A stretch of DNA of 64,000 nt, from contig NW_026960608.1 in assembly GCF_021018805.1 (NCBI RefSeq), forward strand, positions 1,178,001 through 1,242,000. Reading direction: 5' to 3'. Below are positions 8,562 through 39,871 of the stretch, piece by piece (within the stretch, counting starts at the first letter, position 1; every line of letters begins with the position of its first letter). The notes beneath the pieces were generated by a model. It was not told the origin of the DNA. It searched no databases and worked only from the letters and a program-made list of their open reading frames with translations. The position numbers were made by a program, and so were the translations under genes. Origin of the DNA: Prinia subflava (taxonomy: Eukaryota; Chordata; Aves; Passeriformes; Cisticolidae).

Positions 8562-8953
8562 TGTTGGTGGAGGGTTAAAAAATATAATTTCTGGATTGAG
8601 TAATGTGTAGGGGGAGGAAAGTAGAGAACGTACAACTGGAACTTGACGCAGCTAGCTTGGAACAAGCGTCAGCTTCTGTAAACAGCTCCATGCTATTGTT
8701 TTAACCAAATCAAGTGTGGATCAGGGTAGAAGCGTAGGTATGATTTAAGATAGTAACTAAGGAATAGGATAATCAGTATCTAGGGGTGGGGGTTAGTTAA
8801 CATGTGTATAATTTAAACTATAAAAGTCACGAATTGACTCTGTATCCTTTGGACATCAGATTTGGGTGTATTATCACCCCTGTGTCCCGCGCGCTTGAAT
8901 AAAGAACCGCATATGATCGCCTTCGTGTGGTTATATGTTTTCCTACGCTAACA
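8562..8953 (+). repeat. ERV-A 5' LTR
   Basis: 392 bp, TG...CA. A TATA-like 'ctataaaag' lies at 8818-8826 and AATAAA at 8898-8903, so U3, R and U5 have a normal order. U5 is short (about 50 bp after the poly(A) signal). Confidence 0.95.
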
Positions 8954-8957
8954 TTTT

Positions 8958-8975
8958 TGGCGACCCAGATGGGAC
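8958..8975 (+). other. ERV-A primer-binding site
   Basis: Eighteen bases beginning TGGCGACCCAGATGGG lie four bases after the LTR. They would pair with the CCA-tailed 3' end of a host tRNA. The nearest match I recall is the arginine tRNA group, with a couple of mismatches, so the tRNA identity is tentative. The same 18 bases occur in ERV-B at 32543-32560. Confidence 0.8.
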
Positions 8976-9258
8976 CTTGTGGGCGCAGCCAGGACCCCGC
9001 GACCCGATCACGCTCCAGCCGGCACCGGGTGATTTCTCGGGGAGCCCATCGGAGCCGCGACCCTCGCCGCTCACAACGACCCCTGGTGAGAAGGTAAGGT
9101 TCTTTATTCTCTGGTCTGGGGGCCTGCCATTAAGACGCAGCGAAAGCTACGCTTGGTTGGGCAAAAGGAATTCCTGGTGGTATTGCCTAGGCAGCCGTCC
9201 GTCAGACATCGCGAAAGCGTTGCAGGTTCGGCATCTGTGGTTTTTATGTATCTGTAAT

Positions 9259-9579
9259 ATGGAGAAACTAAAAGGGTTAAAAGAGGTTTTGGGCAGCAAT
9301 AATGCCTCTATACCAAGTTCTTCTCCGTTGGGTTGTTTGTTGGCACATTGGAAAGAGGGGAACTTCGGTCAGGAATTACGAAAAGATAAGTTGATTGAAT
9401 ATTGTAATGTTCACTGGCCAAAATACGCTTTGCCTGAAAATCAGAGGTGGCCGAAAAACGGGTCTTTTGATGTGAAGGTTATTATGCAACTTAGATCGCT
9501 TTGTACACAAGATAGAAAGGTAGAACAATTACCATATATTGACTTATTTCTGTGCTTGCTTGAGAAACCGGTTTTGTAG
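9259..9579 (+). pseudogene. gag: ERV-A gag, matrix part, ended by an in-frame stop
   Basis: The ATG at 9259 begins a 106-residue matrix-like protein (MEKLKGLKEVLG...). It has the small helical, Trp/Lys-rich look of gammaretroviral matrix (…CLLAHWKEGNF, NVHWPKY, W-P-x-N-G-S-F). There is no Gly at position 2, so N-myristoylation is not expected from this start. A TAG at 9577-9579 ends it. The next reading segment (from 9589) is in the same frame, so this is one point stop rather than a frameshift. Matrix normally targets Gag to the membrane. An ATG further upstream in the LTR (8935) extends the frame but runs through the LTR and primer site and is unlikely to be used. Confidence 0.8.
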
Positions 9580-9588
9580 CTTGACAAA

Positions 9589-12500
9589 ATGAAAGCAATG
9601 AAGCTTGAGAATAAGAAGTGTCTGGCTTGCGTCCAAAATAAGCATTGTATGGAACATGCAGTTTTAAGTGAAATTTTAGGGGAAAAAAGAGATGAACTGG
9701 AATCGGAATTATTGGTATCTCCCATGGCTCCCGGAACCACCACGGCCCCCTCAACACCAAGTTCTACCCCGCTCACCCTGACCCCACCTGATTCTCTTAC
9801 ACCCCCCTCGCGCACGCCAGCACAATATGTTTCACCCCCACCTTTGTCTGCTAAAGGTAATTATCCTCCTCTGCCTGTGCCAGCCGCTCCTCCGCTTGCC
9901 CCTCCTCTGCCTGCTCAGAGAACCCCCCCTTCTCCACATACACCTGCTCAAAGCTATCCTGCTCCCCCGCCCACACCCGCTGAAAGAAAATATACTGATC
10001 TTCAAGTAGACAGTGAGCAAGGAAGAACGCAGCTTGCCTTTATTTTTCTGGGTCAGGCACAGGAAGATATTAGGAAAAAGCTACAGAAACTGGAAGGTGA
10101 AGAGTTAAGAAACTTGGATAAACTCCTAGAGGTTGCCTGGAAAGTTTATAATAACAGGGACAGAGAAATTGTCAAGAAACAGGGGCAAAGCCTTTTGGCA
10201 GTCTTACAGAGACAGGGGCGGGGACGTGGTAGAGGTGGTCGTGGCGTTAATAGAGGTGGCTTTGGCAGAGGTTCTGGTCATGGTAGATTAGGTCTGAATC
10301 AGTGTGCATATTGTCGGATGGAGGGACACTGGAAAAGGGAGTGTCCAAACCGGTTTAGCCAGAATGGTCAGCCTCAGTTAGACAGTATGTTTAATCAAAG
10401 TCGTGAGCATCAGCTGGATGGTGTAGCCAGGGTCATGGTTTTACATGAGAGGGAGCCAGGATCAAGAGAGCCCATGGTGACTTTGCATTTAGAAGGAAAA
10501 GACGTAGATTTTCTCATTGACACGGGGGCCACACATTCTGTACTAAATTATCTTGAGGGGCAAATCGGGAACAAGTCAGCAGCAGTCATTGGAGCCACAG
10601 GGAAGGAGGAGGTACGGCCATTCTTGCAACCCCTAGAATTGAGCTTTGAAGATAAGATCTTGACCCATGAATTCTTATACATGCCAGACTGCCCAACTCC
10701 GCTCTTAGGGCGCGATCTACTGGCAGCACTGGAGGCAGTAATTACTTTTGAGAATGGTGAACTCGTAATGAAAATTCCGGAGTCTAAGACAGGAAAGATT
10801 TTGATGATAAAAGAAAAACCAATTTCTAATATTCCTAAAGAAGTAGAAGATGCAGTAATTCCCTCTGTCTGGGAAACAGATGTACCTGGAAAATCTAAAT
10901 TGGCACAACCGGTACATGTAGAGTTAAAAGAAGGAGCAAAGGCTGTACGAATCAAACAATACCCTATAAAACCAGAAGCACGACAGGGAATAGCAAAGAC
11001 CATTGATAAATTTTTAAAATATCGAATTCTAGAGGAATGTAAATCGGAATACAACACCCCAATTTTCCCAGTGAAGAAACCCAATGGTGAGTATAGACTT
11101 GTACAGGATTTAAGAGGTATAAATGAAATAACAAAAGACATTCATCCAGTGGTTGCCAATCCCTATACATTGTTAGCATCCGTAAAGGAGATATATAAAT
11201 GGTTTACTGTAATTGACTTAAAAGATGCTTTCTTCTGTATACCCCTTGACCAAGAAAGTAGGAAACTATTTGCCTTTGAGTGGGAACATCCAGAAAGTGG
11301 AAGAAAAACTCAGCTCACCTGGACTCGATTACCGATGGGGTACAAGGGGTCCCCCACTCTCTTTGGAAGTCAACTGGCAAAAGAACTGGAAATCTGGACC
11401 AGAGAAGGGCAAGTACCAAGAGACCAATATTTATTACTCCAGTATGTAGATGACATTTTGATTGCAACAGAGGAAGAAATGACCTGCATAAAGGTAACCA
11501 TTGAGATCTTAAATTCATTAGGAATGGGAGGGTATAAGGTATCCAGAGAAAAAGCACAAATTGCCCAACAGACTGTGATTTACCTGGGATGTGAAATCTC
11601 ACAAGGGCAGAGAAAACTGGGTACTAATCGTATTCAAGCTATCTGTGCTATTCCAGAGCCCCAGAATCTACACGAGCTGCGGATCTTCCTCGGAATGACA
11701 GGGTGGTGTCGCCTGTGGATCATGGACTATGGACTGATTGCAAAACCTTTGTACGAGGCTCAGAAGACGCAGCCGTTCACCTGGGGCAAACCACAGAAAG
11801 AGGCCTTCCAGAAGTTAAAGGAAGCACTGACAACTGCTCCTGCTTTGGGGTTACCTGATCTGTCTAAAGACTTTCAGCTGTACGTGCATGAAAGGCAGCG
11901 ACTGGCACTGGGAGTCCTGACCCAACGACTGGGAAGCTGGAAAAGGCCGGTGGGTTACTTTTCCAAACAACTCGACAACGTAAGTGCCGGATGGCCTTCA
12001 TGTCTGCGGGCAGTGGCAGCTACCGTGCTGCTGATACAGGAAGCCAGGAAGCTCACAATGGGAAGACACATAGATGTCTATGTGCCACACATGGTAACTA
12101 CAGTCCTGGAACAAAAGGGGGGCCATTGGCTCTCTCCAAGCCGCATGATGAAGTTTCAGGTAACCCTGACTGAGCAGGATGATGTTGCACTAAAAACAAC
12201 TAACCTCTTGAATCCAGCTCTATTTCTAGGTGTCACAGCTGAGGAAGGTCCATTAGAGCATGACTGTCTAGAAGTCATCGAGCACACTTATTCAGCAAGA
12301 ACAGATCTGAAGGATGTCCCCCTGGAGCAACCAGAGTGGGAACTCTTTACAGATGGAAGCAGCTTCATGGAGAACGGAGCCAGATACGCGGGATATGCGG
12401 TAACTACAATTGATGTAGTAATAGAGGCAAAATCACTACCACCTAACACGTCTGCACAAAGGGCAGAACTAATCGCATTAACCAGAGCACTCGAGCTGAG

Positions 12501-13695
12501 TGAAGGGAAGACAGTGAATATTTGGACTGACTCCAAATATGCCTTCGGAGTAGTGCATGTACACGGAGCTTTATGGAAAGAAAGAGGACTGCTGTCCTCC
12601 CAAGGGACAAATATTAAACATCAAGATGCAGTCCTACAATTGATAGATGCAGTACAAAAACCTGAACAAGTAGCAATCATGCACTGCAAGGCACATCAAT
12701 CAGGCAACTCCAAAATTTGTGAAGGAAATCGAAAAGCAGATTGGGCAGCCGGTCAGGTAGCACGAGAGGTGCAGAAAACAATGGCATTGATACCATCAAG
12801 ACTTAATATCTCTCAATTTAATTTGCCTACGAAGCCAAACTATACAATCGAAGATGACAGACTAGCACAACTGCTGAAGGCACAGAAGAACGCAGAAGGG
12901 TGGTATGTAACCGCACAAGGGCAAATAGTGGTACCTCCTTTGGTAATGAGAGAAATTTTACAGGTAAAACATAATGAGTGTCACTGGGGTGCAGAGGCGT
13001 TGGTAAAGTGGTTAAGACAATACCTAATCTCAGTATGGATGCAAACAATGGCCAAGTCAGTAATGTCTATATGTGAAATCTGTCTGAAAAACAATCCTGT
13101 AGCTAGACGACAGGCACAGTTAGGCAGAATTCGGATAGGAATAGAACCAGGAGACTATTGGCAAGTGGATTTTGCAGAACTGCCAAAAACTCGGGGATAC
13201 AAATACCTGTTAGTAGGGGTTGACACGTTTTCTGGATGGCCAGAAGCCCTTCCCTGTCGCACAAACCAAGCAAAGGAAACAGTTAAGTGGTTATTACAGG
13301 AAATCATTCCCAGGTTTGGGGTGCCCCTAGGGATATCATCAGACAGAGGCCCACACTTCATAGCCACGGTGGTACAAGAGGTAAGCAAGTTATTGGGATT
13401 ATCTTGGGACCTCCACACACCATGGAGACCCCAGTCAAGTGGGCAAGTAGAAAGAATGAACCAGACACTGAAGAGGCAGATCAGTAAAATATGCCAGGAA
13501 GCCAAACTGCAGTGGCCACAGGCTTTGCCGATCGCATTGCTGAGGGTTCGGATAAAGCCTAGGAGTGGGATGTCAGTTAGTCCTTATGAAATATTTTATG
13601 GGAAACCATATGAATCTCCTAACCCCAATCCAAATGTTCATGTCACAGGGAAACAAGATGTGTATAATTATGTTCTGTCCCTCGGAAAACTCTAG
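9589..13695 (+). pseudogene. pol: ERV-A gag-pol: gag remnant, PR, RT, RNase H, integrase
   Basis: A 1,368-codon open frame continues the matrix frame. Residues about 45-135 are Pro/Thr/Ser-rich. Capsid is reduced to its C-terminal part (RKYTDLQVDSEQGRTQLAF…LQKLEG). Next come an RG-rich stretch and one CCHC zinc knuckle (C-x2-C-x4-H-x4-C from residue 239; nucleocapsid). The aspartic protease motif is DTGA (D311). Reverse transcriptase has LPMGYKGSP and YVDD (619-622). RNase H begins at TDGSS (D922). Integrase has the HHCC zinc site (H1128 and C1162-C1165) and catalytic D1194, D1252 and E1288 with 35 residues between the last two. No stop separates gag from pol, where gammaretroviruses have one. 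The frame ends early at 13693-13695; the integrase C-terminus continues in another frame. Confidence 0.93.
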
Positions 13696-13715
13696 CTTGG
13701 CTCCGAAGTGTTCTC

Positions 13716-13982
13716 GTGTGGAACAGACCACTGGCCCTGGAGAATCCAGTCCACAATATCGAACCAGGAGATGAGGTATACATCAAAACCTGGAACGAAG
13801 AACCACTAAAAGAGAAGTGGACTGGTCCCCATCAGGTACTGCTAACCACCTTTACAGCAGTCAAAGTGGCTGGAGTGGAACCCTGGATACACTACACGCG
13901 TGTGAAGAAGGTCCCTCGTGGAGTCCAGTCGTGGGCTGTAGAAACTTTTGGACCAACAAAGCTGAGGCTGAAACGTCTGTAA
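13716..13982 (+). pseudogene. pol: ERV-A integrase C-terminal domain, out of frame
   Basis: Eighty-eight codons with the beta-barrel C-terminal domain of gammaretroviral integrase (EPGDEVYIKTW, TGPHQVLLTTFTAVKV, WIHYTRVKK). This DNA-binding part should be continuous with the gag-pol frame but lies in a different frame. The shift falls between about 13680 and 13715. The frame closes at 13982, nine bases before the env ATG. Confidence 0.88.
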
Positions 13983-13990
13983 CTGTTCAA

Positions 13991-15769
13991 ATGGTATTGG
14001 TAACTGTGCTCATGCTCTTCCTGTGGGTAATGTTAATTTCATGGATACTAATGTCACCTGTAGGGATTGCTGTTACTTTGGGATATGGGATACAGAAGGG
14101 TCAACTAACAACTCTTCATTCTAGAATGAAGAGAGAGATACAGGCAAAAACACAAGTAATAGAAATTTCTAATGAAATTCGGGCTGAGAATGTAATGATT
14201 GGATTGGTCAGAGACTTTGCCAAAATGCATAATACCAGCAGAATAACGGCCTGTCTGCCAATACCAAAGGCAGCAGGGGACCCAGTAAGCTGGGGAATAA
14301 TAACGTCAAAATTACCTGAAATAGGAGGGAACAAAACAATTAACTGTAAACAAGTACCAGAGTCAAGGGTGGTGGTCAGAGAATACTGGAAGATAACAGA
14401 GGATTCTTATATGCAACCCATGAGAAAGTCAGAGTGCATTCTTAGTAATGGCAAATTGGGACAAATCATAGAGTGGTGGGTTAAGGACCAAGACCTTGCA
14501 AAATGGCAATGTTGGTTTCTACGCTATCAAAAGATCAGGGACAACGCTACAGAAAGTGTTGTGGTGTGGAAATGTGAAGAGAAGGATTGGAAAGGACTGG
14601 AACCTTGGGACAGTGCATGGTCTGTGAGCATCCTCCAGAAATTCCAATATATGGAAAGCACACCCTGGTGCATTAAATGGAAAGGCTCTGAAAATGAGAC
14701 AGATCCCACAGTGACGAATACTGATACTAGTAGTCAGAAAGAGGCAAATAAGGTAAGTTGGTGAGTATGTAAGAAAATTTATGATTGCACCTCTGATAAT
14801 CTGGAAATGAAACAGTGGTCACCATTGGCAATAGCCTTACGAATTGGTTGTGCCTGCAGGAAAATTAAACACAAACAAGGCAAAATAGATTCTAAGATTA
14901 TAGTAGGATGTAGCAGGAGTACAATTCGAAGTCCAGGACCATTTGTATGGGCAATGAGTGATGGCACATGGACAACACACTTGCCTATGGACGGGGAGGT
15001 AAGAGAAATCACCCTGGGCCTTCCCACTTTATGTCCAATTTGGAAGAAATCCCCATTTAACAGGAGCAGTGAGGCCTTGCAAATAAAAGCAAAGCGAGAC
15101 GTCTCAGAAGACAAGAACCCAGATGACACTTGGAAGGAACCCTCTAGTGGAGTAAAGATTGGGTGGGCCCTAGAATCCTTGTTTGGTCCCATTGCAAATT
15201 ATCGAAATAGAGAAATGCTATATAGACTCACAGGTCAGGTAGACAGATTAGCAAGAATCACACGAGAGGGATTTAGGGAACTCAATGTGCAATTACAGGC
15301 CACCACCAAAATGACAGTGCAAAATCGTTTGGCTTTAGATATGTTACTTTTGAAAGAACACGGAGTGTGTGGATATTTAAAGGGACAAATCGACCATTGC
15401 TGCATCCACATCCCAAATGTAACTGCAGATGTAGAACATGGCATCAGTCAGTTAAAACAAATAGAGCATGAGGCACAAAAGGAACAAAAGGATTTAGCTA
15501 CTAGCTGGTTGGGTAAAATCTTTGAAGGATTAGGATGGAATGTGAGTTCATGGATAAAGTCTATCCTTGAAAATCTGATAATTTTACTGATTATATTTTT
15601 AGTAATTTGGTTAGTTTACAGAATCCTGAAGAGAGAGATACAGAAAAAGGCATCTTGGAACAGGACCATAATGAAGGCATTGGCACGGAACCCAGCACCT
15701 TCAATCCGCAACAACATCCCGGACAAAGCCTATGACAACAGAGGATTTGAAGATGAACATCCAGTATGA
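13991..15769 (+). pseudogene. env: ERV-A env with one internal stop
   Basis: The ATG at 13991 opens a 593-codon frame interrupted once, by TGA at 14762-14764. The N-terminus is a long hydrophobic signal-like segment (MVLVTVLMLFLWVMLISWIL). The surface subunit has several N-x-S/T sites and scattered Cys. A basic cleavage site (KAKR) lies at about 15090-15101. The transmembrane subunit has an immunosuppressive-like helix (QNRLALDMLLLKEHG), then a Cys followed nine residues later by CC, a hydrophobic anchor (about 15565-15630) and a short tail. The overall TM plan resembles alpharetroviral and gamma-type envelopes, which mediate receptor binding and membrane fusion. The surface subunit is not one I can match. 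Confidence 0.88.
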
Positions 15770-15839
15770 ACTCTGAAGCCTAATGGACTGTATTAAGTGA
15801 AAGCATTTACACTTAGTATATTAGAGTGAAAATACTTTC

Positions 15840-15850
15840 AAAGGGGGGAA
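15840..15850 (+). other. ERV-A polypurine tract
   Basis: The purine run AAAGGGGGGAA directly abuts the 3' LTR and would prime plus-strand DNA synthesis. Confidence 0.9.
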
Positions 15851-16242
15851 TGTTGGTGGAGGGTTAAAAAATATAATTTCTGGATTGAGTAATGTGTAGG
15901 GGGAGGAAAGTAGAGAACGTACAACTGGAACTTGACGCAGCTAGCTTGGAACAAGCGTCAGCTTCTGTAAACAGCTCCATGCTATTGTTTTAACCAAATC
16001 AAGTGTGGATCAGGGTAGAAGCGTAGGTATGATTTAAGATAGTAACTAAGGAGTAGGATAATCAGTATCTAGGGGTGGGGGTTAGTTAACATGTGTATAA
16101 TTTAAACTATAAAAGTCGCGAATCGACTCTGTATGCTTTGGACATCAGATTTGGGTGTATTATCACCCCTGTGTCCCGCGCGCTTGAATAAAGAACCGCA
16201 TATGATCGCCTTCGTGTGGTTATATGTTTTCCTACGCTAACA
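15851..16242 (+). repeat. ERV-A 3' LTR
   Basis: 392 bp; differs from the 5' LTR at four positions noted by eye (all between about 16050 and 16135). TATA and AATAAA are conserved. Confidence 0.95.
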
Positions 16243-16670: not shown

Positions 16671-16903
16671 CAAGCTTGCTAAGTATTGCCTGTGCCTGGG
16701 AGCTTCGCCTGAGGTACTTGGGCAGGAGGTACTTAACAGTACCCCCTATCCAGGAACACCTAAGGCAGCTGGGATGGGACTGAAGCTACCGGGAAAAACA
16801 AAACACCTGGGACTGAGCGATGGAAGCCGGACAAGGATTCTGTGACCTGGTTTTGAGGACTGAGCTGGTGCCAGGGCTCCAGAGAGAGCTGTAACACTGC
16901 TGG
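16671..16903. other. Short host segment between two ERVs
   Basis: 233 bp between the C' LTR and ERV-F with no recognised feature. Its first bases (caagcttgctaag) are the inverse of cttagcaagctt at 8246-8257, just left of the C' LTR. Confidence 0.4.
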
Positions 16904-17678
16904 TGAAAGGAACAGGGCATATGCCTTTATTAATATTCAGCTCTTTATTAAAGTGATCAGCTCATTATTAAAATCATCAGCAGGATTGCAAAGTCCGATC
17001 AGAGTTTTCCACACTACTGCAGCCATCTGAAGGAGCAGGTGCTGTCCCAGTGGATGCTGAGTCCTTGTTCCCATAGAAACAGCTGGCAGTTCTCTCTGGT
17101 CAACCATCAGAAGGCAGAGCACTGGCAGTCAGCTCTTTGCCCTCAGGGAAAAGTTTCAAGAGTTTCCCATTCTCTCCATCAGTCAGCTCAGCTGGCCGGT
17201 TCCCATTCCATTCAGGCTCCTCACAGGTCATGGCCAATCTTCAAACCAGGCCAGGAGGTGCACCCACTCCCCGCTCAGCCAGGGCACTATCCCATTCTCT
17301 TCTGACGAATCCAGCTTCCTGTCCTGGGGTGCAGTATCCCCCAAAAAAACCTCCCAGGATCCACGGGGGCGGCCCTGCCCTATCTGCATATCCAAATGCA
17401 TATGCATTTGTCCTGGTCATAGCCGAAGTTACTCTTGCTAAATGAGGTAGTTACAAAGGACAATAGGGCTATCTAGGTGTGGGCAGCTTCTTTTCACATT
17501 TCAATTAGGTAGGGAAAAGTTGCCAGGCAACTTTCCTTCAGGGCAGCTCTCCCTGCTCAGATTGTCTGGGGTGTGGAGGGTGTTACTCTAGCCAGGAGAG
17601 GGTCAGTTGTGGGGTGGTTGTTTTTTTTTTGTTTTTTTTTTTTGTTTTTTTTTTTTTTTTTTTTTTCCGTTCACAACA
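16904..17678 (-). repeat. ERV-F 3' LTR (left copy)
   Basis: 775 bp. On the minus strand it begins TGTTGTGAACGG followed by a long poly-A run, and ends with two AATAAA signals and CTTTCA. It is essentially the same sequence as 23749-24522. A plus-strand solo copy, diverged, lies at 40806. Confidence 0.95.
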
Positions 17679-17697
17679 AATCCCTCCTCTATTTCTT
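17679..17697 (-). other. ERV-F polypurine tract
   Basis: On the minus strand the sequence AAAGAAATAGAGGAGGGATTT runs directly into the 3' LTR. Confidence 0.75.
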
Positions 17698-18017
17698 TGA
17701 TCGGGCTGTAGCCCGCATCAACTTGCAGCTTCCTACTGTGTATCTTCTCAGTAGACACTGCTCAAAGAAATTTAGGAGTTCTCTAGGGGAATTGCCCAGC
17801 AGGAAACTGAGCAGATGTGGGAGGGGTGCCTTTAAACTTGGGTTTTTTATCAGGAATTAAGACACACTCGATAACAATTTAACTAGGGATAGGTCTCTTG
17901 GTCTCTCAATTGTTATCTACGTAGAAGAGGTGGCAGGTGGTCCTGTTGGGTCTGGTTCGGCATCAGGGGCGGTACTGGTCCTGTGACTCCGGTAACGTGG
18001 GTCTGACTTCTCTCTGG

Positions 18018-18066
18018 AGTTCACACTGCGGTATGTGTGGTGAGCAGCACCTGGAAGAGACTTTCA
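18018..18066 (-). pseudogene. pol: ERV-F remnant of integrase C-terminal domain
   Basis: Reading the minus strand from about 18066 gives ESLFQVLLTTHTAV followed by a stop. This matches the QVLLTT-type core of the integrase C-terminal beta-barrel, as seen intact in ERV-A (HQVLLTTFTAV). Only this short stub remains. It lies immediately downstream, in element order, of the CR1 3' end, so the CR1 appears to have landed in or next to pol. Confidence 0.6.
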
Positions 18067-18083
18067 TAATTTTCCTCTTTTTA

Positions 18084-19560
18084 GTTACAGAATTACAGAA
18101 TCACTAGGCTGGAAGAGACTTCTAGGATTAAGTCTAACTCTAATTACACGATGTCACTAAGTGCTACATCTACTCTCTTCTTACACACATCTAGGAATGG
18201 TGACTTCAGCTCTTCCAGCTAGTATTTATAGGGCTAGTGTTCTAAGCTTCTCACTAGCTTTGTTGCTTTCTTTTGACACGCTCAAGCATCTTAATGTCTT
18301 TTTTAAACTGAGGGGCTCAGAACTGGGCACAGTACTCAAGGAGTGGCCTCACCAATGCTAAGTGGCCTCACCAATGCTATGTGTAAGGAAAGGATGACCT
18401 TTCTGCTTCTGCTGGCCACATTATTCTCAATACAGCCTACGATATTGTTAGCTTTGGCCATCAGGGCATACTGCTGGCTCATATTTAGTTGGTTATCAAC
18501 TAGCACTTTCAGGTCTTTTTCTGCTTGGGTACTGTCTAGCTACACTACCTTCAACTTGTAAGGTTGCAGGGGGTTATTGTGGCTAAAATGCAACACCTGG
18601 GATTTGGACTTATTAAACGTTATCTTCTTGGATTTTGCTTATCTATCCAATCATTTTAGGTTTCTCTACAGAGTCTTCTTACTCTCTAACAGATGGACAC
18701 GTGCTCTCAGCTTAGTGTCATCTGTAAATTTACTAATGAAGGACTCAATATTTTCATCTGTGTTATTAATAAATATAATAAATAGAACTGGCTTCAGCAC
18801 AGACTTTTGAGGGACACCACTGGTGGCTGGTTGCCTGCTGGATGCAGCACTATTCGTTACTACCCTCTGGGCTTGGGTATCTAGCCAGTTCTTAACTTAG
18901 CAAAGAGTGTTCTTGTCTAAGCTGTGGGAAACAGTGTCAAAGACTTTGCTGAAGTCTGAATAGACAACATAAACAACTTTTCATGTATCTACCAGGCAGG
19001 TCACCTGGTCAGAGAAGGAGGCTAGTGGGGTCGAACACTACTTACTTCTCTTAAGCTCATGCTGGCTGGGTCTGATACTCTGTTTATCTCATCAGTGCTG
19101 CACAATAGCTCTCAGTATAAACTGTTTTATCATCTTACTCGGTACTTTGGTCAGGCTAACTGGCATATAATTACTAGGCTCTTCTCTACTCTTTATGAAT
19201 GGGAATTACATTGGCTAGCTCTCAGTCATCTAGAACTTCACTAGTGAGTTGAGACTGTTGGTAGATGATAGAGTGGCTTTGCAAACTTATCAGTTAGCTC
19301 TCTTATCTCTTTGGGATGGATTTCATGTGAGTGGGCATTCAAGCAAATTACTACTTCTCTGACTACTTTGTTTTTGATAACAGGAGGACTATTCTGTTCT
19401 TTAAAAATATCTACTGACTCAGTATGACCACTGTCTTGAAGACAAGCTGTCTTCTCACTAAAGACAGCAGCAAAACAAAGCATAAAGCACTTCTGCTTTC
19501 TCTTTGTCTGCAATTACTAATTTTCTTCTTACTTTGAATCATGTTCTAGATTGGCTAGGG
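18084..19560 (-). mobile_element. CR1 LINE captured inside ERV-F, CC-depleted
   Basis: The plus strand reads as the complement of an avian CR1. It starts at the 3' tail (ttacagaatcactaggctgg), followed by landmarks such as 'gtactcaaggagtggcctca', 'ctgctggctcat', 'gtgtcatctgtaaatttact', 'gtgggaaacagtgtcaaaga' and 'ttttgataacaggagg'. The upper limit is approximate. It lies in the same orientation as ERV-F. Compared with the CR1 pattern I recall, CC has repeatedly become CT on the plus strand, so no reading frame survives. Confidence 0.75.
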
Positions 19561-21035
19561 GTTCTCTAGCGAGAAACTGCATAGGGTGATTAATTCTAAG
19601 TCACTTGTGTTCATTATTTTAGAGTCAGTCAACTAGTGTTAAGTCTTCTGGCTTAGCAATTTTTCTTTTGCAGGATCAACCTTTTAGACTTCTTTTATTA
19701 GGGTAGCTGTTACTGCAACTGTTTGCAGGCAAGTTGGTTATCTCTTAACTACTGGGTCTAGTAGTTTTGAGAGGTAGACCGTAGACTTTGATTCTCACTA
19801 TCAGGGATCTATAGTCTCTCATGCTTTGCTTTTTTTTTTTTTTCTTGGTCTGAATTTTAGCTGGTGTCTATTAAGGGCATCTTATGGTCTCTTGGGTGTC
19901 ACAGTCTATTTTTTTTATTTTTGCTATCTGGACTATCCGGGCTTCTTCTGGAGTGAACAGAACTATTAGAATAGAGTTTAACTCTCTCTAGAAATAACTA
20001 TTTGGCCTCAGAAGCTGGTCTAGCTGGTTAGACATTCCAATGGGGACTTCTACTAAACCCTCTCTCTTTCTTAGAGTCTTGGGCTTCAGGGGTTGTCAAA
20101 GGTGCATTTATAAATTTTAATCTTTTTAATTAATCTATAGGAACTTTTCTAAGGGGAAAGACCTCCTCTGTTCTTGGTGCTTTGGATTGGGTGTTGTAAT
20201 CTGTCTCTTCCTCTAAAACACCAGGTAGAGGGAGCAGTAGTGGAGACAGGCCAAGAGAAACACTGGGCAGGGGTGGTTCCCACTCCCAAGTGGGGAAGTG
20301 AGGGTATCACAATTGGTGAAGGGGAACTGTTGGAGAGGTTAAGGAAGAGACTGGAGGTACAGCTGGGGTAGGAGGGAGAGTTTGCATATTTTCACATTTT
20401 CATTACTTATAGTTTTCTAGCCAGCAGGCTGCATAAGATAGTGGTTTTACATCAGGGTCTTCTTGGGCTTAGAGATGTTGGTTTAAGTGGTTACACATTT
20501 ACTGAATTCAGGTCTTACACTATGACTACTCTCTTTGTAATTTTACTCTTTGTGGTCTTTTAAGGATATTATTGGTCTGACAATTGTTCTAGGGGGATGT
20601 TAGGGAGAATCTTCTTTACTGTCTTTTTGGAAGGGTCTGCTTGTTTACTATAACATCATCTCAGTTTTTAGGCCTTAAAATAAAAGGAAAAACGAAGTAC
20701 TTTAACAATGCTTCAATCTAAACTGGAATATTCTGATTGGCAATCTAAACTTTAAGATAACTAAAGGTTGTCTGATCTCTCACAACTAAACATTCTGAAT
20801 CTCTTTGCTGAACTTTAAAGGGTCAGAATATAATTTCTTGGCAACCCACTTTTGACACTTTTTCGTCTGTCTCTTTTTAAAACTCTCTCTTGGCTATGAC
20901 ACGTACTACTATGAATCACACCCATTGTTTTCTGCTAAGGGTATCTCTCTTAACTTTTCGACTTAAGTCTGAACTTCTTTCTAGGCTTTCTAGGCTTGGA
21001 CCCCTGCTGAGTCTTGTTTGAACTCTCTAACTTCA
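19561..21035. other. ERV-F body, unassigned CC-poor sequence
   Basis: I see no gene or repeat here beyond a T-rich tract near 19830-19850. On the plus strand it is rich in CTCT and CTAG and poor in CC. That continues the bias seen in the captured CR1 and stops at the start of the 193-bp array. Confidence 0.55.
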
Positions 21036-22386
21036 CAAGGCTTAGGAGGCTTGAACTCCCTGCCAGGCTGAGGTCGAACGTCCTGCCGAGCCTCACACCT
21101 GAACTCCGGCCAAGCCCCCCTTGCCCCCTAGGCTTAGGAGACTCGAACTCCCTGCCGGGGTGAGGTCGAACGTCCTGCCGAGCCTCACTCCCGAACTCCG
21201 GCCGAGTCCCCTTCGCCTCCCTTTCCTACAAGGCTTAGGAGGCTTGAACTCCCTGCCAGGCTGAGGTCGAACGTCCTGCCGAGCCTCACACCTGAACTCC
21301 GGCCAAGCCCCCCTTGCCCCCTAGGCTTAGGAGACTCGAACTCCCTGCCGGGGTGAGGTCGAACGTCTTGCCGAGCCTCACACCCGAACTCCGGCCGAGT
21401 CCCCTTCGCCTCCCTTTCCTACAAGGCTTAGGAGGCTTGAACTCCCTGCCAGGCTGAGGTCGAACGTCCTGCCGAGCCTCACACCTGAACTCCGGCCAAG
21501 CCCCCCTTGCCCCCTAGGCTTAGGAGACTCGAACTCCCTGCCGGGGTGAGGTCGAACGTCTTGCCGAGCCTCACACCCGAACTCCGGCCGAGTCCCCTTC
21601 GCCTCCCTTTCCTACAAGGCTTAGGAGGCTTGAACTCCCTGCCAGGCTGAGGTCGAACGTCCTGCCGAGCCTCACACCTGAACTCCGGCCAAGCCCCCCT
21701 TGCCCCCTAGGCTTAGGAGACTCGAACTCCCTGCCGGGGTGAGGTTGAACGTCCTGCCGAGCCTCACTCCCGAACTCCGGCCGAGTCCCCTTCGCCTCCC
21801 TTTCCTACAAGGCTTAGGAGGCTTGAACTCCCTGCCAGGCTGAGGTCGAACGTCCTGCCGAGCCTCACACCTGAACTCCGGCCAAGCCCCCCTTGCCCCC
21901 TAGGCTTAGGAGACTCGAACTCCCTGCCGGGGTGAGGTCGAACGTCCTGCCGAGCCTCACTCCCGAACTCCGGCCGAGTCCCCTTCGCCTCCCTTTCCTA
22001 CAAGGCTTAGGAGGCTTGAACTCCCTGCCAGGCTGAGGTCGAACGTCCTGCCGAGCCTCACACCTGAACTCCAGCCAAGCCCCCCTTGCCCCCTAGGCTT
22101 AGGAGACTCGAACTCCCTGCCGGGGTGAGGTCGAACGTCCTGCCGAGCCTCACTCCCGAACTCCGGCCGAGTCCCCTTCGCCTCCCTTTCCTACAAGGCT
22201 TAGGAGGCTTGAACTCCCTGCCAGGCTGAGGTCGAATGTCCTGCCGAGCCTCACACCTGAACTCCGGCCAAGCCCCCCTTGCCCCCTAGGCTTAGGAGAC
22301 TCGAACTCCCTGCCGGGGTGAGGTCGAACGTCCTGCCGAGCCTCACACCCGAACTCCGGCCGAGTCCCCTTCGCCTCCCTTTTTGT
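21036..22386. repeat. Seven-copy 193-bp tandem array inside ERV-F
   Basis: The marker 'caaggcttaggaggcttgaa' (or its equivalent) recurs at 21036, 21229, 21422, 21615, 21808, 22001 and 22194, an exact 193-bp period. Each unit is two related halves of about 96 bp. One half has 'ggaggcttgaactccctgcc' and CCTTGCC; the other has 'ggagactcgaactccctgcc' and CTTCGCC. That is a dimeric higher-order repeat. Copies differ at only a few positions. The array is GC- and CpG-rich and lies in the 5' part of the element, downstream of the leader. Confidence 0.97.
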
Positions 22387-22559
22387 TTATCTGGCTGCTC
22401 TTTTTGTTTGCCTTTTTTTTTGCTCATAAATCTTGCTTTCCTTCTTTCTTGCCTGTCTGCTTTCTTGTCTGTTTCCTCACCTTTATGCCTGCTTTCCTGC
22501 TTGCTAATGATATCTTACTTGCTTGCCCGGATATGCTTAAACTCTCTTGGGGACAGCCC

Positions 22560-23310
22560 ACCTGCCTCCTGGGACATCATGCCCTATCCTGCCAGGGACT
22601 TCCCACTTGCCCTATTAGGGATCTTCCTTGCCTGCCTGTCAGGGCATCCTGCCCTGCCCGAGACTTTCTACCTGCCCTGCCAGGGACTTTTTCTCACCTG
22701 CCTACTGGGGCATCTTGTTTTGCCATGCCGGGGACATTACCTTGCACCTGCTCTGCCGGGGATCTTTCCTCGTCTGCCTGATGGGGCATCTTGCCGTGCC
22801 AGGGATCCTCTTTCAATTCCCTTCTGGAGCAGCCCTGCCAGGGACCTCTCACCTGCCCTGCTGAGGATCTTCTCTCATCTGCCTTCTGGAGTAACCCTGC
22901 CAGGGGCCTCTCACTTGCCCTGCTGGGGATCTTCTCTCGCCTGCCTACTGGAGCATCTTGTCTTGTTATGCCAGGGACATTACCTTGCACCTGCTCTGCC
23001 GGGGATCATCCCTCGCCTGCCTGATGGGGCATCCTGCAGTGCCAGGGATCTTCTTTCACTTGCCTTCTGGAGCAGCCCTGCCAGAGACCTCTCACCTGCC
23101 CTGCTGGGGTCTCCTCTCACCTGCCTTCTGGGGCAGCCCTGCCAGGGACATTACCTTCCCTGTTGGGGATCTCCTCTCATCTGCCTTCTGGGGCAGCCCT
23201 GCCAGGGACATTACCTTCCCTGTTGGGGATCTCCTCTCATCTGCCTTCTGGGGCAGCCCTGCCAGGGACCTCTCACCTGCCCTGCCGAGGATCTTACCTC
23301 ACACCTCAAG
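22560..23310. repeat. Second, imperfect repeat array inside ERV-F
   Basis: Units of about 60-66 bp share gccagggac…tcacctgccctgctggggatcttctc. A larger period of about 250 bp is seen in two 'ggacattaccttgcacctgc' blocks (about 22731 and 22977). Three near-identical about 60-bp units end the array (about 23100-23280). A long plus-strand open frame crosses it (22279-23691), but it is a product of repetition without stops and antisense to the element. Confidence 0.85.
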
Positions 23311-23371
23311 AGCCTTTGCACGCTCGATGGGGCCCTCCCCCAAGGAGGCGCCTCAGTCACTCTTCTATGCC

Positions 23372-23500
23372 ATTCGCTTCCCGCCCGTTCTCGGCCGGCA
23401 CCCTCTCGGGAGACCGGAAACGCGATACTAGGGGGTCCACTCTCGCTCTGGGGGTCCGAGCTGCCGGCCCCCATCTCACTCAAGCACTCATTCACTCGCC
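23372..23500 (-). other. ERV-F leader block shared with ERV-C
   Basis: A GC-rich segment (cgcttcccgcccgttctc, ggagaccggaaacgcgat, ggtccactctcgctct) matches the leader of ERV-C at about 39428-39505 in the same order. It lies between the primer site and the coding or body part in both elements, where retroviral packaging signals occur. Confidence 0.65.
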
Positions 23501-23728
23501 TCCCATTTCCGCCACGGATTTATCTCACCCATCTGGCGTTCTTCTGCTTTGCTTGGTCTCACGATGATCCCAGGGCCGATCCAGCGCTGATCCCAGGGCC
23601 GATCCTGCGTTCTTCTGTGCTGCTTGGTCCCATGCTGATGCCAAGGTCCGGGGGTAGCCAGCGATTCCCAAGGATCCCTCGAAGCAGATGATCGTCTTCT
23701 TCGGGGGTGGTCCTGTGTGGGCGTGGCT

Positions 23729-23746
23729 ATCCCGGACGTGCCCCCA
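23729..23746 (-). other. ERV-F primer-binding site (proline tRNA type)
   Basis: On the minus strand, two bases after the LTR, the site reads TGGGGGCACGTCCGGGAT. It differs at one base from the proline-tRNA site typical of murine gammaretroviruses. This fixes the element's orientation. Confidence 0.9.
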
Positions 23747-23748
23747 AT

Positions 23749-24522
23749 TGAAAGGAACAGGGCATATGCCTTTATTAATATTCAGCTCTTTATTAAAGTG
23801 ATCAGCTCATTATTAAAATCATCAGCAGGATTGCAAAGTCCGATCAGAGTTTTCCACACTACTGCAGCCATCTGAAGGAGCAGGTGCTGTCCCAGTGGAT
23901 GCTGAGTCCTTGTTCCCATAGAAACAGCTGGCAGTTCTCTCTGGTCAACCATCAGAAGGCAGAGCACTGGCAGTCAGCTCTTTGCCCTCAGGGAAAAGTT
24001 TCAAGAGTTTCCCATTCTCTCCATCAGTCAGCTCAGCTGGCCGGTTCCCATTCCATTCAGGCTCCTCACAGGTCATGGCCAATCTTCAAACCAGGCCAGG
24101 AGGTGCACCCACTCCCCGCTCAGCCAGGGCACTATCCCATTCTCTTCTGACGAATCCAGCTTCCTGTCCTGGGGTGCAGTATCCCCCAAAAAAACCTCCC
24201 AGGATCCACGGGGGCGGCCCTGCCCTATCTGCATATCCAAATGCATATGCATTTGTCCTGGTCATAGCCGAAGTTACTCTTGCTAAATGAGGTAGTTACA
24301 AAGGACAATAGGGCTATCTAGGTGTGGGCAGCTTCTTTTCACATTTCAATTAGGTAGGGAAAAGTTGCCAGGCAACTTTCCTTCAGGGCAGCTCTCCCTG
24401 CTCAGATTGTCTGGGGTGTGGGGGGTGTTACTCTAGCCAGGAGAGGGTCAGTTGTGGGGTGGTTGTTTTTTTTTTGGTTTTTTTTTTGTTTTTGTTTTTT
24501 TTTTTTTTTTCCGTTCATAACA
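23749..24522 (-). repeat. ERV-F 5' LTR (right copy)
   Basis: 774 bp; begins TGTTATGAACGG plus poly-A on the minus strand. Two single-base differences from the left copy outside the homopolymers (near 17577/24421 and in the terminal TGTTGTGAA/TGTTATGAA). Confidence 0.95.
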
Positions 24523-24528
24523 CTGGCT

Positions 24529-31886: not shown

Positions 31887-32540
31887 TGAGACACTAATTT
31901 TGAAGATGTAAAAAAAAGCTAAGGTAATAGTAAAAAATAGGTTTTGCTGATTTAGCTGAAATGAATAGATAAGCTTTGCTGAAATCAGTTAAAAGTTAGA
32001 GGATGTTTAAAAGAAACCGGATTTAAGATAAGCTACCCCGGATTTAATAAGTCATTGCTTGTCAAACAGAGAAACTAATCAATACAACACCAGACCTCCT
32101 GTTTCCAGAAACCCACTGAAATAGTACTGGAAAACAGGAAACAGGGAGTTCTACCATCCATTAATCACATGTGCATTGAAAAGGTTGAAAGTTTAGAAAG
32201 AGGAAGACTCGTTTTACTTCCTCCTTTTGGTGACCACTCCTCACAAAAGCACCACCAAGCCATTTCACGGAACAAACTACGCAAGCTTAATAGCCTTGCT
32301 GTCAATTAGCATAGGAAGCGGAGAAGAAGAAGTGACAGCGGTATGAATATGCATTTGTATTTTGTGTATTCAACATTTTTGTAAATAAAAGGCTTTGTGA
32401 TTTTTGCAGTGCACATTAGGGAGCTATCCCACGCGCTGCTCGCAATAAACATACACTTTCTAACTTTAACTGTTAGAGAGTTTTTTGTCTCTCACAGTTG
32501 GATATTGATATTAGATCAATATTCACATTTTAATAATTCA
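31887..32540 (+). repeat. ERV-B 5' LTR
   Basis: 654 bp, from TGAGACACTAATTTTGAAG to ATAATTCA. It contains 'gtaaataaaaggctttgtga', giving a poly(A) signal near 32384. Further copies lie at 46551-47219 (minus) and 49552-52311 (plus, split). Confidence 0.93.
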
Positions 32541-33795: not shown

Positions 33796-34480
33796 TGTTA
33801 TAAACGCCAGGACAAATTTATTGCCAAATTCAATAGTTTGGTTTATTAACATCCAAATCACAAAATTTAGAATCAAATTATAACAATTTCAAACAATAAA
33901 AACAAAACAATACGAACCCCACGAACAGCAAACTTACTTGACCGAAGTTCTCCCGGGAAAAGTAGAGCCAAGGGTGACCCCAGAGACACAGGACCTGGCA
34001 GCCTTGTCTCTAGCTGGGTTCACAAATTTGCCCACCTAAAGGCCCAACTTAAATACCCTTAACTTTCCCTTCGGCAATCTTCCTCCCATTGTTTCTCTAA
34101 TCGTCGGCCATTAACTTTATTTACATTAAATCCCGAAAGGGTCCCCAGGCATATTCAAATGCTAATGTCCAGAGTTAGTCCTTGCTTTGAGTAACTGTCG
34201 TAGAGGTGTGTGATGACCGGTGTGAGTCCTCGCTGGCACGTCTTTGCTGGCACGTAGCGTTTGACCTGTTGCGAGTCCAGATGAATTGAGCTGCACGTAG
34301 GCAGGGGCAAGTCGTTCTCACCTTCCATTTTTAGAACCCGGAAGATCAGGGAGGTGCTTTCCAGAAGTTCGTGAAACGTGCGGGTTGAGCATACACACAC
34401 ATACCTTTATATAATATATATCACAGTTCCCAATCTATAATTATTTATAAAACATGAATTAAATAACCATATTTCCCACA
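33796..34480 (-). repeat. ERV-C 3' LTR (left copy)
   Basis: 685 bp. On the minus strand TGTGGGAAATATGG… to …TTTATAACA, with TTAATAAACC as poly(A) signal and TATATAA about 34410-34425. Confidence 0.95.
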
Positions 34481-34502
34481 ACTCCCCCATTTCTTTTCTT
34501 TT
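34481..34502 (-). other. ERV-C polypurine tract
   Basis: On the minus strand AAGAAAAGAAATGGGGGAGT runs straight into the 3' LTR. Confidence 0.9.
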
Positions 34503-34922
34503 GTCAATAATTTTAATTCATGTTTTGTATTTAACTTAATTGTTTTCCTCTCTCGAGTTTCCCGTTCCTTGGAGAAACACCTGACCAGCGATTCCTGAAC
34601 CATGTTTGCCTTTTCTGCTTTTCTTCTATCTTTCCAATTCCCATGTCCCTGACTGCCTTTGAGTGCCAGCTAGTTACTTGTGTCTTAACAGGGGTAACTT
34701 TTTTGGAGGAGCCTTATGTCACAGGGCTAGCCCTTCACCGAGCGCACAGCCTGGTTCACACTCCCTAGAGTGATCCGCAGAGGCTTCCCTCTGTCTGGCC
34801 CAGCGTCTGTCGGGTTGCAACCGAACAACGGGGAAGTTTCTTCGCGACAGCAGGGGCTCTCTGCTCGGACCCTCGGGGTGGTTCGGACGGCACACCTCCT
34901 TTTCAAAAATTCCCCACCGAGA

Positions 34923-35222
34923 TTACTTTACTTGTTCTGGCACTACATTAGTTCGACGGCACTTCGTGGCTAACACTTGGGCCTTTAGATCCAATTTTCC
35001 CTTTAACCCCTTTTCATATATTGAATACCACCCGGGATAATTTGGTTCTATCAATCCCAAACGTGTGGCACAGTTTAAGAATCGCATAGTCAGAGTCTGT
35101 TTTTCCTCAGGACACCTGGGGCATAACCCCAGCGGCCCCCCCCACCCCCACTGGCAGTGCACCACCCAAATTTCAAGACAATAATTGTATTTGAAATGGA
35201 TATATGGATTGCAGGGGGGCAT
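34923..35222 (-). CDS. Small Cys-rich open frame in the env position of ERV-C
   Basis: Ninety-nine codons from the ATG at 35222. I do not recognise the product. The N-terminal half has paired Cys/His (MPPCNP, NYCLEIWVVHCQW, LCPRCPEE), which could form a zinc-binding fold. The C-terminal half is basic (KGLKGKLDLKAQ, KCRRTN). It lies between the integrase C-terminus and the polypurine tract, where env would normally be. A G-run (about 35136-35150 on the minus strand) lies within it. Another frame from an ATG at 35260 also runs into this G-run, so the true frame is unclear. It may be an accessory gene, an env remnant or chance. Confidence 0.35.
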   Translation of the reverse strand: MPPCNPYIHFKYNYCLEIWVVHCQWGWGGPLGLCPRCPEEKQTLTMRFLNCATRLGLIEPNYPGWYSIYEKGLKGKLDLKAQVLATKCRRTNVVPEQVK

Positions 35223-35392
35223 CCAGGTTCAGAGCAGCGCATGGATATTTCTTCTGCCATTTGTTTCTGATATCCTGGGGTTGGAGTTCTTTCTCTTTAA
35301 ATTTCTGGAGCTCCGGATTCACCCTTCCTGATGTTCTAACACCTTCCTTCTGGTTACCCTTCCCTCTCTCAGTCCTCCTTGTCGGGTGGTTA

Positions 35393-35692
35393 TTAAGTTT
35401 CCTTTGAGGCTCCTCTAGGCTGCAGCTTAATGTTTCCAGGGTGTTGGCATCCTCGGTGCAGCCGGACCCTCAGATCTCCGGGGGAAGAGATGACCTTCCA
35501 TTCGGGGTTTTCCCTCGGGGCTGTTAGTTTCTTAACCCTGGAGGCGTGTGTCCAGCCTCTTTCAGCTGTTCGGATGGTTGTATCTGTAGTTAAAAGGACA
35601 AGAAAGGGTCCCTCCCAATGAGGGGTTAATGACACCGCTTTCCAAGCTCTGATCAGTACTTTACCTCCTGGTTGTATCTCATGAATATACAT
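35393..35692 (-). pseudogene. pol: ERV-C integrase C-terminal domain
   Basis: The frame reads IQPGGKVLIRAWK, LTPHWEGPFLVLLTTDTTIR and WTHASRVKK. This is the beta-barrel C-terminal domain of gammaretroviral integrase. The catalytic core upstream (higher coordinates) is not readable. The domain contributes DNA binding in an intact integrase and can have no role alone. Confidence 0.85.
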
Positions 35693-36579
35693 CGAAATCC
35701 TGCAACTTCCTCAGATTGAATTTACCTAATACAAAATTCCAAACCAGCCCAATACTACAAGAATATTGTATAAAGAGAATCCCTGTCATGTCTACCATTC
35801 AGAAAATCTGAATATTAGAACAAGTTATCTAATAGTACATTCACACCTTTACCATAAAAACAATTTTGTCCCTGGATCACTATGATTCTCACCTCACTAT
35901 CCACCCAATGTACCATACCATCCAGAATTTTTCCCCTTTTTTGTACTGTTACAGGAAAAATCAGAAAGAAAATTTTACTTCTTATTAAGCATACAAACAA
36001 TTCTTTTTACATCCTACCAATACTTCTGACAGTGTCCACTGGATATATAGCGAGCAAACAATAAACACTAAGACTACTCCAAATCCCATAGTATTAACAC
36101 AGGTTTTAGCTTTTTAAAGAAAAATTCAGTTTAAAAAATCATAGATGAGCACAAACAATTTGGGCTTATTTCAAGAATCAAACTCAGCACATTCAGAGTG
36201 ATTTGGCATACAAACAAACATTCATAAAACCCAGTATCCTACAATGCTCGGTGACAACAGCAGTTTCCAGGACAATCAGCTGTTAAGGTTACACACATCC
36301 TCACTCAGTTTCTACAGCCTCAGTGTAATGAGTCTGCACTGCTGCTAATTAACTGAACTACAAATTTATATTCCAGACCCCTACTCAGCACATTCTCAGA
36401 TACACACAGCCAAAAGAAGGACGCAACTTGAGTGAGACAATGAGACCACCTTGTCCCTATTTTCGATGTGCACCCTGCCATGGCCATTCTCACTCAGCCT
36501 CCAAGAAGCATCTGCCTTCACAACTGCTTCTCACCCTTGCTTCAGCCACCCCTAACGATCAGCAAAATTAACACAATTC

Positions 36580-36965
36580 CAGAAGCACTATCGGACCTTT
36601 CAGCTCTGCTGTTAGCTTGATGGCGACACTTCTTATTTTGGTTTGTAATTCCACTGCCTCGTAGCAATTGTGACTACACTCCTCAGATCCTCCCCAGGAC
36701 CGAAACTGGGCGGGGTTTCAAGCAGCAGCAGTACGGAGTTCTAACTCCGGGGAATTTACCAGAATTGCCTCATATTTCAATAGCCGGGATTCAGTAAGCC
36801 ATTTAAAACATACCCCACCGGTTTCCTGGCTCCCGCCCACTCCTGTGTAAGAACTCCATACGCCGTGTGATTGCTAACATCCACGAAAAGCTGGAACTCC
36901 CGGTTAATATACCGGGGCAGTTCCCATCAACTACTCGTGCAGATCCGTCTACAAACCATTTCTCA
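36580..36965 (-). pseudogene. pol: ERV-C decayed RT-connection and RNase H fragments, rearranged
   Basis: Translated minus-strand pieces in different frames are recognisable: FQLFVDVSNHTAYGVL (36851-36900) and YEAILVNSPELELRT (about 36735-36777), both from the RT connection domain, then YEAVELQTKIR (about 36620-36655) from the start of RNase H. A WFVDGSARVVDGN piece (about 36911-36949), normally the RNase H active-site start, lies before the connection pieces. The order is therefore not canonical. Stops and frame changes separate all pieces. Confidence 0.65.
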
Positions 36966-39867: not shown

Positions 39868-39871
39868 AAAT

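What the first reader, a model, noticed from the sequence alone, without database searches (positions are those of the whole stretch)
18084..21035. Strand-asymmetric loss of CC inside ERV-F: signature of G-to-A editing on the viral strand
In 19081-19440 I count 1 CC but about 17 GG on the plus strand. Similar runs of lines without CC continue to about 21000 and end where the 193-bp array begins. Against the CR1 pattern I recall, CC has become CT again and again (for example CCAG to CTAG, CCGG to CTAGG-like). ERV-F lies on the minus strand, so this is GG-to-AG on the viral plus strand, the classic mark of a cytidine deaminase acting on minus-strand cDNA. APOBEC-type editing of LTR elements has been reported in songbirds. 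Here the edited stretch includes a captured CR1, so the CR1 must have been carried as viral RNA when it was edited. The LTRs, leader and arrays are not biased, which suggests recombination between an edited and an unedited template. An edited copy then kept moving.
Basis: partly seen in the sequence, partly recalled or inferred. Interest (0 to 1): 0.85.

Follow-up and report, generated by a model that had tools for sequence, protein, structure and literature searches.

The report
Deaminase-edited bird retrovirus carrying a LINE
A young retrovirus-like insertion in a bird genome carries about 3 kb, including a captured CR1 LINE fragment, in which most GG pairs on the viral strand have become AG, the scar of a DNA-editing defence enzyme; this kind of scar is already known, but here it is near saturation in places and stops abruptly.

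Summary
In 18084-21035 the plus strand has 45 CC where 108 are expected. Only C preceded by C is lost (T share 0.88, against 0.50 on the other strand). The 24 scan windows wholly inside the tract all score above the best window away from it.

No close DNA parent could be fetched, so conserved residues of songbird CR1 proteins were used to fix the parent base. On the viral strand G became A at 56 of 156 positions, C became T at 8 of 73. By fixed neighbour, GG was hit at 20 of 26; GA, GC and GT at 10 of 74. The element keeps 3 of 26 conserved Gly/Trp; each of 18 relatives keeps 80-100%. The LTRs are unbiased.

The signature continues outside the CR1 (composition; integrase tail GG 6 of 8 from a weak alignment), so the CR1 was probably in the retroviral RNA when edited.

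Editing of minus-strand cDNA by an APOBEC-type deaminase is well supported. The abrupt stop at the 193-bp array is real. Whether it reflects recombination or one uneven editing cycle, and whether the edited copy kept moving, could not be tested. New member of a known kind.

The parts
16900..16903 (.). Target-site duplication CTGG, left copy
   Evidence: Identical 4 bp at 16900-16903 and just after the right LTR
16904..17678 (-). 3' LTR of the element (viral sense on the minus strand), not edited
   Evidence: 99.4% identical to 23749-24522; TG...CA ends; against the related LTR at 40901-41585 GG-to-A 6 of 53 and CC-to-T 5 of 53
17679..17698 (-). Polypurine tract directly before the 3' LTR
   Evidence: Read in viral sense; role inferred from position and composition
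17741..18083 (-). Apparently partly edited zone between PPT and CR1, including an integrase C-terminal tail at about 17985-18078
   Evidence: Weak tblastx matches (E 0.017, 0.42, 9.9) to 35534-35620, 45771-45824 and 13809-13862, whose intact frames are MLVIN_C in Pfam (E 1e-9, 2e-17, 2e-15); against the 35.6-kb copy GG-to-A 6 of 8, other contexts 1 of 14
18084..19520 (-). CR1 LINE fragment, 5' truncated, sense same as virus, reverse-transcriptase region; edited
   Evidence: RVT_1 E 7e-12 with X at stops; 48-64% identity to the 120 listed, mostly bird, proteins; protein matches cover about 18165-19474; upper edge approximate; CR1-like 3' end repeat at 18084-18107 read by eye
18084..20980 (+). 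CC-depleted tract (CC to CT on plus strand = GG to AG on viral strand)
19880..20420 (-). Possible remnant of gag (proline-rich stretch followed by capsid-like motifs), edited and broken
   Evidence: By eye from the translations, motifs recalled; not supported by Pfam or by protein search; tentative
21035..22382 (.). 193-bp tandem array, 7 copies, no CC loss
   Evidence: TRF; CC 242 against 210.7 expected
22383..23728 (-). C-rich leader, no CC loss
   Evidence: CC 166 against 162.8 expected in 22383-23748
23729..23746 (-). Primer-binding site resembling tRNA-Pro type
   Evidence: Read next to the 5' LTR; tRNA assignment recalled, not tested
23749..24522 (-). 5' LTR, no CC loss
24523..24526 (.). 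Target-site duplication CTGG, right copy

Best explanation
This is a young, structurally complete but probably non-autonomous gammaretrovirus-like (ERV1-type) insertion whose internal part was hypermutated by an AID/APOBEC-type cytidine deaminase. During reverse transcription the enzyme deaminated C in 5'-CC on the single-stranded minus-strand cDNA, and the change was fixed as GG-to-AG on the viral plus strand (direction and context shown; the enzyme and the moment inferred). The edited cDNA already contained a CR1 LINE fragment lying between a possible gag remnant and an integrase tail, so the CR1 was part of the packaged RNA (inferred from the signature on both sides of the CR1). The LTRs, array and leader stayed unedited. 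Birds lack APOBEC3 (recalled; the abstract of PMC5399452 calls A3 specific to eutherian mammals), so the likeliest enzyme is an avian APOBEC1 homologue or AID with an A3G-like preference for CC (inferred).
For: Strand- and context-specific loss of CC. Codon test against conserved CR1 residues: G-to-A 56 of 156, C-to-T 8 of 73, A-to-G 4 of 128, T-to-C 9 of 114 (Fisher G-to-A v C-to-T P = 6e-5). Fixed-neighbour test: GG 20 of 26, GA 5 of 29, GC 3 of 17, GT 2 of 28 (GG v rest P = 6e-9); opposite-strand controls CC 1 of 13, AC 2 of 11, GC 2 of 17. Conserved Trp read as stops at 4 of 7 sites. Gly/Trp kept 3 of 26 in the element, other residues 192 of 253; each of 18 relatives keeps 80-100% of its Gly/Trp. 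Outside the CR1: CC 25 against 44 in 19641-21035; integrase tail GG 6 of 8, other G 1 of 14 (P = 0.002). Related LTR unbiased. TSD, PBS, PPT, near-identical LTRs. Strong LTR editing in zebra finch and oscine birds is reported second-hand in PMC6523648 and PMC6497032 (passages); a zebra finch APOBEC1 homologue is named in PMC3880073 (passage).
Against: No close DNA parent was available; the main reference is protein-level. Two old CR1 3' ends in the window give a mixed DNA picture for 18084-18260: the 55.9-kb copy fits in one gapped alignment (GG 6 of 9, other G 2 of 17) but not in a short one (36 columns, no GG); the 29.2-kb copy does not fit well (GG 3 of 10 or 6 of 17, GA 8 of 15 or 8 of 17, by alignment). 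In the integrase-tail alignment (59% identity) total G-to-A (7) barely exceeds A-to-G (6), and CC-to-T is 3 of 10 (GG v CC P = 0.15), so only the context speaks there. Editing is estimated at 40% at 20079-20378 and 49% next to the PPT, not the peak-before-PPT profile that PMC12548423 states for human A3G in HIV-1. The stop at the array is sharper than a simple gradient. The motif of songbird deaminases was not found in what I saw; the key paper is not held.
Confidence: 0.9

Rival explanations
1. Mosaic by recombination (a rival about the sharp edge, compatible with editing): the 3' half comes from an older edited copy and the leader and array from an unedited co-packaged RNA, joined by a reverse-transcriptase template switch near 21.03 kb, and the recombinant then inserted here.
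For: Estimated editing falls from 82% to 1% between neighbouring 300-bp bins at the array edge; array and leader (2.7 kb) show no loss of CC. RT switches templates about 9 times per genome per cycle in HIV-1 (PMC4871359, passage).
Against: A single editing cycle can also leave the 5' half unedited: mouse Mtv61 shows a sharp drop throughout its 5' half (PMC12548423, passage). No sibling copy was examined.
Confidence: 0.5
2. Single uneven editing cycle (the other reading of the edge): one reverse transcription in which the enzyme reached the early-made, long-exposed minus-strand cDNA (3' half) but not the last-made, quickly copied 5' part, or was kept out by the GC-rich array.
For: The unedited part is the PBS-proximal part, which stays single-stranded for the shortest time (established order of reverse transcription); Mtv61 precedent; LTRs nearly identical.
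Against: The step is abrupt: no CC deficit in an array with 242 CC, while editing is high next to it.
Confidence: 0.42
3. Compositional trait of the parent sequence (a T-rich, CC-poor strand by drift or selection), not editing.
For: The plus strand of the tract is T-rich (AT skew -0.14 to -0.22 over 18001-21000). The mixed result with the 29.2-kb CR1 copy.
Against: AC, GC and TC are not reduced in parallel; 18 CR1 relatives keep the Gly and Trp that this copy lost.
Confidence: 0.03
4. The CR1 was edited during its own LINE retrotransposition, before capture.
For: CR1 sense equals viral sense, so the sign of the change would be the same; [quoted passage not shown]
Against: The CC deficit continues through 19641-21035 (25 against 44) beyond the recognised CR1 matches, which end at about 19474, and the integrase tail shows GG 6 of 8 (weak alignment).
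Confidence: 0.06

Closest known systems
APOBEC-edited LTR retrotransposons of songbirds (Knisbacher and Levanon 2016; not held, seen only as cited in PMC6523648 and PMC6497032)
   Same: LTR element in a bird genome, C-to-U on one strand read as G-to-A on the other
   Different: Here one provirus, with near-saturated GG-to-AG in places, a captured CR1 and a sharp edge; the motif reported for finches was not seen by me
GG-to-AG hypermutated primate gammaretroviruses CERV1/CERV2 (PMC2564838, passages seen)
   Same: Gammaretrovirus proviruses, GG context; uneven editing between regions of one provirus is described there for the related RhERV2
   Different: Attributed there to APOBEC3G, which birds lack (recalled)
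Hypermutated mouse Mtv proviruses, Mtv21, Mtv61 and the Mtv17/Mtv23 pair (PMC12548423, start of abstract and passages seen)
   Same: Heavy G-to-A editing; Mtv61 has sharply fewer changes in its 5' half; Mtv23 looks like a transposed copy of an edited provirus
   Different: Mouse A3; their LTRs are edited too; no captured LINE mentioned in the passages seen

Membership tests
APOBEC-type hypermutated provirus | G-to-A on viral plus strand far above C-to-T | tested here: met
   56 of 156 against 8 of 73, protein-level reference, CR1 part only
APOBEC-type hypermutated provirus | Dinucleotide preference at the edited base | tested here: met
   GG 20 of 26; other contexts 10 of 74
APOBEC-type hypermutated provirus | Absent in unedited relatives | tested here: met
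   18 CR1 relatives keep 80-100% of Gly/Trp; DNA comparison with two old CR1 ends in the window is mixed
APOBEC-type hypermutated provirus | A responsible deaminase in the host | not testable with these tools
APOBEC3G target as in HIV-1 | Editing peaks just 5' of the PPT | tested here: not met
   Estimate 0.49 beside the PPT, peak 0.95 at 19.2-19.8 kb; criterion as stated in PMC12548423
ERV1 (gammaretrovirus-like) | 4-bp target-site duplication and TG...CA LTR ends | tested here: met
   CTGG on both sides; criterion as given in PMC6523648
ERV1 (gammaretrovirus-like) | Gammaretroviral integrase end (MLVIN_C) | tested here: inconclusive
   The element's tail resembles three intact tails in the window that are MLVIN_C; the tail itself holds a stop and was not accepted as a query
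ERV1 (gammaretrovirus-like) | Pol phylogeny | not tested
   Only an integrase tail of about 30 codons was recognised
CR1 LINE | CR1-type reverse transcriptase | tested here: met
   RVT_1 E 7e-12, relatives among bird proteins with E down to 5e-83; those records bear no CR1 name, 'CR1' is recalled
CR1 LINE | 3' end repeat ATTCTRTG | tested here: inconclusive
   Two copies reading ATTCTGTA at 18084-18107 by eye; last base differs from the motif quoted in PMC6523648

The most novel reading that the evidence does not exclude
An avian deaminase other than APOBEC3 has A3G-like CC specificity and near-saturating power, and a hypermutated, LINE-bearing, non-autonomous retroviral block was rescued by recombination with an unedited leader and LTRs and went on transposing, so that the defence produced a new mobile lineage rather than a dead one.
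Probability: 0.3. Interest if true: 0.65.

Novelty: new member of a known kind. Interest (0 to 1): 0.48.

Why it matters
Birds have no APOBEC3 (recalled), yet this element carries a GG-to-AG scar like that of primate APOBEC3G. It gives a clear substrate from which to work out which avian enzyme edits retroelements and in what context, and a test case for whether editing kills retroelements or seeds new ones. The CR1 inside the edited block also orders events: capture probably before editing.

Tried and rejected
No close CR1 DNA parent was found. P0004 in viral contigs and genome contigs gave none. The alignment A1 gave 1 distant locus and 11 distant loci; L002-L004 were 54-61% identical to the tract in their main blastn matches, too distant for a substitution table. 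tblastn to plasmids gave 485 records, all under 60% identity; 17 of the 20 listed are annotated as group II intron reverse transcriptase. LTR and array patterns in viral contigs gave 0 and 0. Two CR1 3' ends inside the window, near 29.2 and 55.9 kb, align poorly and gave the mixed table told under evidence against.

An edited copy of the array unit just before the array was looked for and not found convincingly. A search of the tract against the window with C and T merged gave many weak matches and no clear relative beyond the CR1 and integrase ends. Clustering of retained CC is not significant (P = 0.085). No other part of the window scored like the tract: the next-best windows (37.0 kb minus strand, 45.2 kb plus strand) reach at most 4.6, and near 37 kb TC and GC are shifted as well. 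The gag assignment at about 19.9-20.4 kb failed in Pfam and in the protein search and is kept only as tentative. Integrase tails of two other proviruses gave only 29 aligned columns each (GG 0 of 1 and 1 of 2). On checking, the confidence in editing went from 0.92 to 0.9 and the LINE-stage rival from 0.05 to 0.06 because and the weak integrase alignment.

Full report
What was checked. Across 18084-21035 CC is 45 against 108 expected from base composition. GG is 194 against 125, but a GG excess is also found in the LTR and leader, so the CC deficit is the anomaly. The loss is confined to C preceded by C on the plus strand: T share 0.88 after C, but 0.50, 0.59 and 0.61 after A, G and T, and 0.50 after C on the minus strand. 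In a scan of 1270 windows of 600 bp on both strands, all 24 plus-strand windows inside the tract exceed the best window elsewhere, windows overlapping the tract's edges left out.

The element. LTRs 16904-17678 and 23749-24522 are 99.4% identical; in the first 700 aligned columns they differ at one site, the rest being a T-run and one C/T near the end. The CTGG repeat flanks both ends. A polypurine tract lies beside the LTR at 17.68 kb and a primer-binding site beside the LTR at 23.74 kb, so the viral sense is the minus strand. Inside, in viral order, are a C-rich leader, the 193-bp array (7 copies), a stretch with possible gag remains (tentative: searches found nothing), a 5'-truncated CR1, and an integrase tail. 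The tail's matches to three intact tails elsewhere in the window are weak (tblastx E 0.017, 0.42, 9.9), but those three are the MLV-type integrase end in Pfam and the motif is plain. No protease, viral polymerase or envelope was recognised in the pieces scanned with Pfam (7 pieces, 4, all from 17689-21225); leader and most of the array were not scanned. The element therefore probably moved with proteins made by another (inference).

Direction and context. From the 120 listed of 1094 protein hits I took 18 relatives by hand, 17 labelled songbird (Hirundo, Turdus) and one pigeon; the 17 songbird ones were used, all 18. At 281 codons where at least four aligned residues (some proteins may count twice through overlapping matches) agree at 75% or more, the residue often fixes a base. 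Viral-strand results: G to A 56 of 156, C to T 8 of 73, A to G 4 of 128, T to C 9 of 114. Where the residue also fixes the neighbour: GG 20 of 26, GA 5 of 29, GC 3 of 17, GT 2 of 28; opposite-strand controls CC 1 of 13, AC 2 of 11, GC 2 of 17. Four of seven conserved Trp read as stops. Leave-one-out: the element keeps 3 of 26 conserved Gly/Trp and 192 of 253 other residues; the 18 relatives keep 80-100% of Gly/Trp.

DNA comparisons inside the window are weaker. Against the CR1 3' end near 55.9 kb one gapped alignment (106 columns) gives G to A 8, A to G 3, C to T 2, T to C 1 and GG 6 of 9; a stricter one has only 36 columns and no GG. Against the one near 29.2 kb (128 or 166 columns) G to A is 11 or 14, A to G 7, C to T 6 or 5, but GA (8 of 15 or 17) is hit at least as often as GG (3 of 10 or 6 of 17). 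I read these old, gapped alignments as inconclusive on context.

Beyond the CR1. Against the integrase tail of the provirus at 35.6 kb (103 columns, 59% identity) GG to A is 6 of 8 and other G contexts 1 of 14, yet total G to A (7) barely exceeds A to G (6), and CC to T is 3 of 10; two other tails gave 29 columns each. In 19641-21035 CC is 25 against 44. So the signature lies on both sides of the CR1, strongly on one and weakly on the other, and the CR1 was probably already part of the retroviral RNA. The related LTR at 40901-41585 shows no bias (GG 6 of 53, CC 5 of 53).

Profile. With the window's baseline share of CC among CC+CT (0.516), the estimated edited fraction per 300 bp from 17679 upwards is 0.49, 0.78, 0.58, 0.70, 0.85, 0.95, 0.94, 0.75, 0.40, 0.87, 0.82, then 0.01 and -0.21 in the array; the opposite strand stays between -0.19 and 0.30. 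Both CTT (115 against 48 on the other strand) and CTC (71 against 35) are enriched, which fits repeated hits in runs of cytidine.

Mechanism. The best reading is deamination of CC on minus-strand cDNA during reverse transcription. Direction, context and extent are shown; the enzyme and the moment are inferred. PMC2564838 (passages) calls APOBEC3G the only known mutator that prefers GG to AG (as of 2008), while the abstract of PMC5399452 (start seen in listings) says APOBEC3 is specific to eutherian mammals. PMC3880073 (passage) names a zebra finch APOBEC1 homologue. PMC6523648 and PMC6497032 (passages) cite strong editing of LTR elements in zebra finch and oscine birds; the former adds that the effect was much more limited in medium ground finch. 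That the host is a songbird is itself inferred from the CR1 relatives (songbird proteins reach 64% identity).

The sharp edge. Recombination between an edited and an unedited RNA and a single uneven cycle both remain open. PMC12548423 (passages) describes a mouse provirus with a sharp loss of editing in its 5' half, and another edited provirus that appears to have been copied, so neither feature would be without precedent. Which applies here needs sibling copies; the genome search did not complete.

Verdict. Real and well supported editing; new member of a known kind, of interest for its GG context in an animal group without APOBEC3 (recalled), its near saturation at 19.2-19.8 kb and its captured LINE.

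Noticed in passing
8562-16242: Plus-strand provirus with 98.98% identical LTRs and a 1368-aa open gag-pol-like frame at 9589-13695; its integrase end is MLVIN_C.
   Followed up: partly
33796-40557: Provirus with two 686-bp LTRs that are 100% identical and a gag-like frame on the minus strand at 38259-39170 (gag by eye); apparently very recent.
   Followed up: no
40901-41585: LTR related to the element's LTRs (79% by blastn over 711 columns; 89% over the 635 ungapped columns) on the opposite strand; used as an unedited control.
   Followed up: partly
31887-32540, 46551-47219, 49552-50113: Three copies of another repeat, 92-97% identical, in two orientations.
   Followed up: no
18342-18383: A 19-bp direct duplication inside the CR1, in a stretch with more retained CC.
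   Followed up: partly
22588-23306: A second, diverged tandem array (units of about 60 and 243 bp) in the leader.
   Followed up: no
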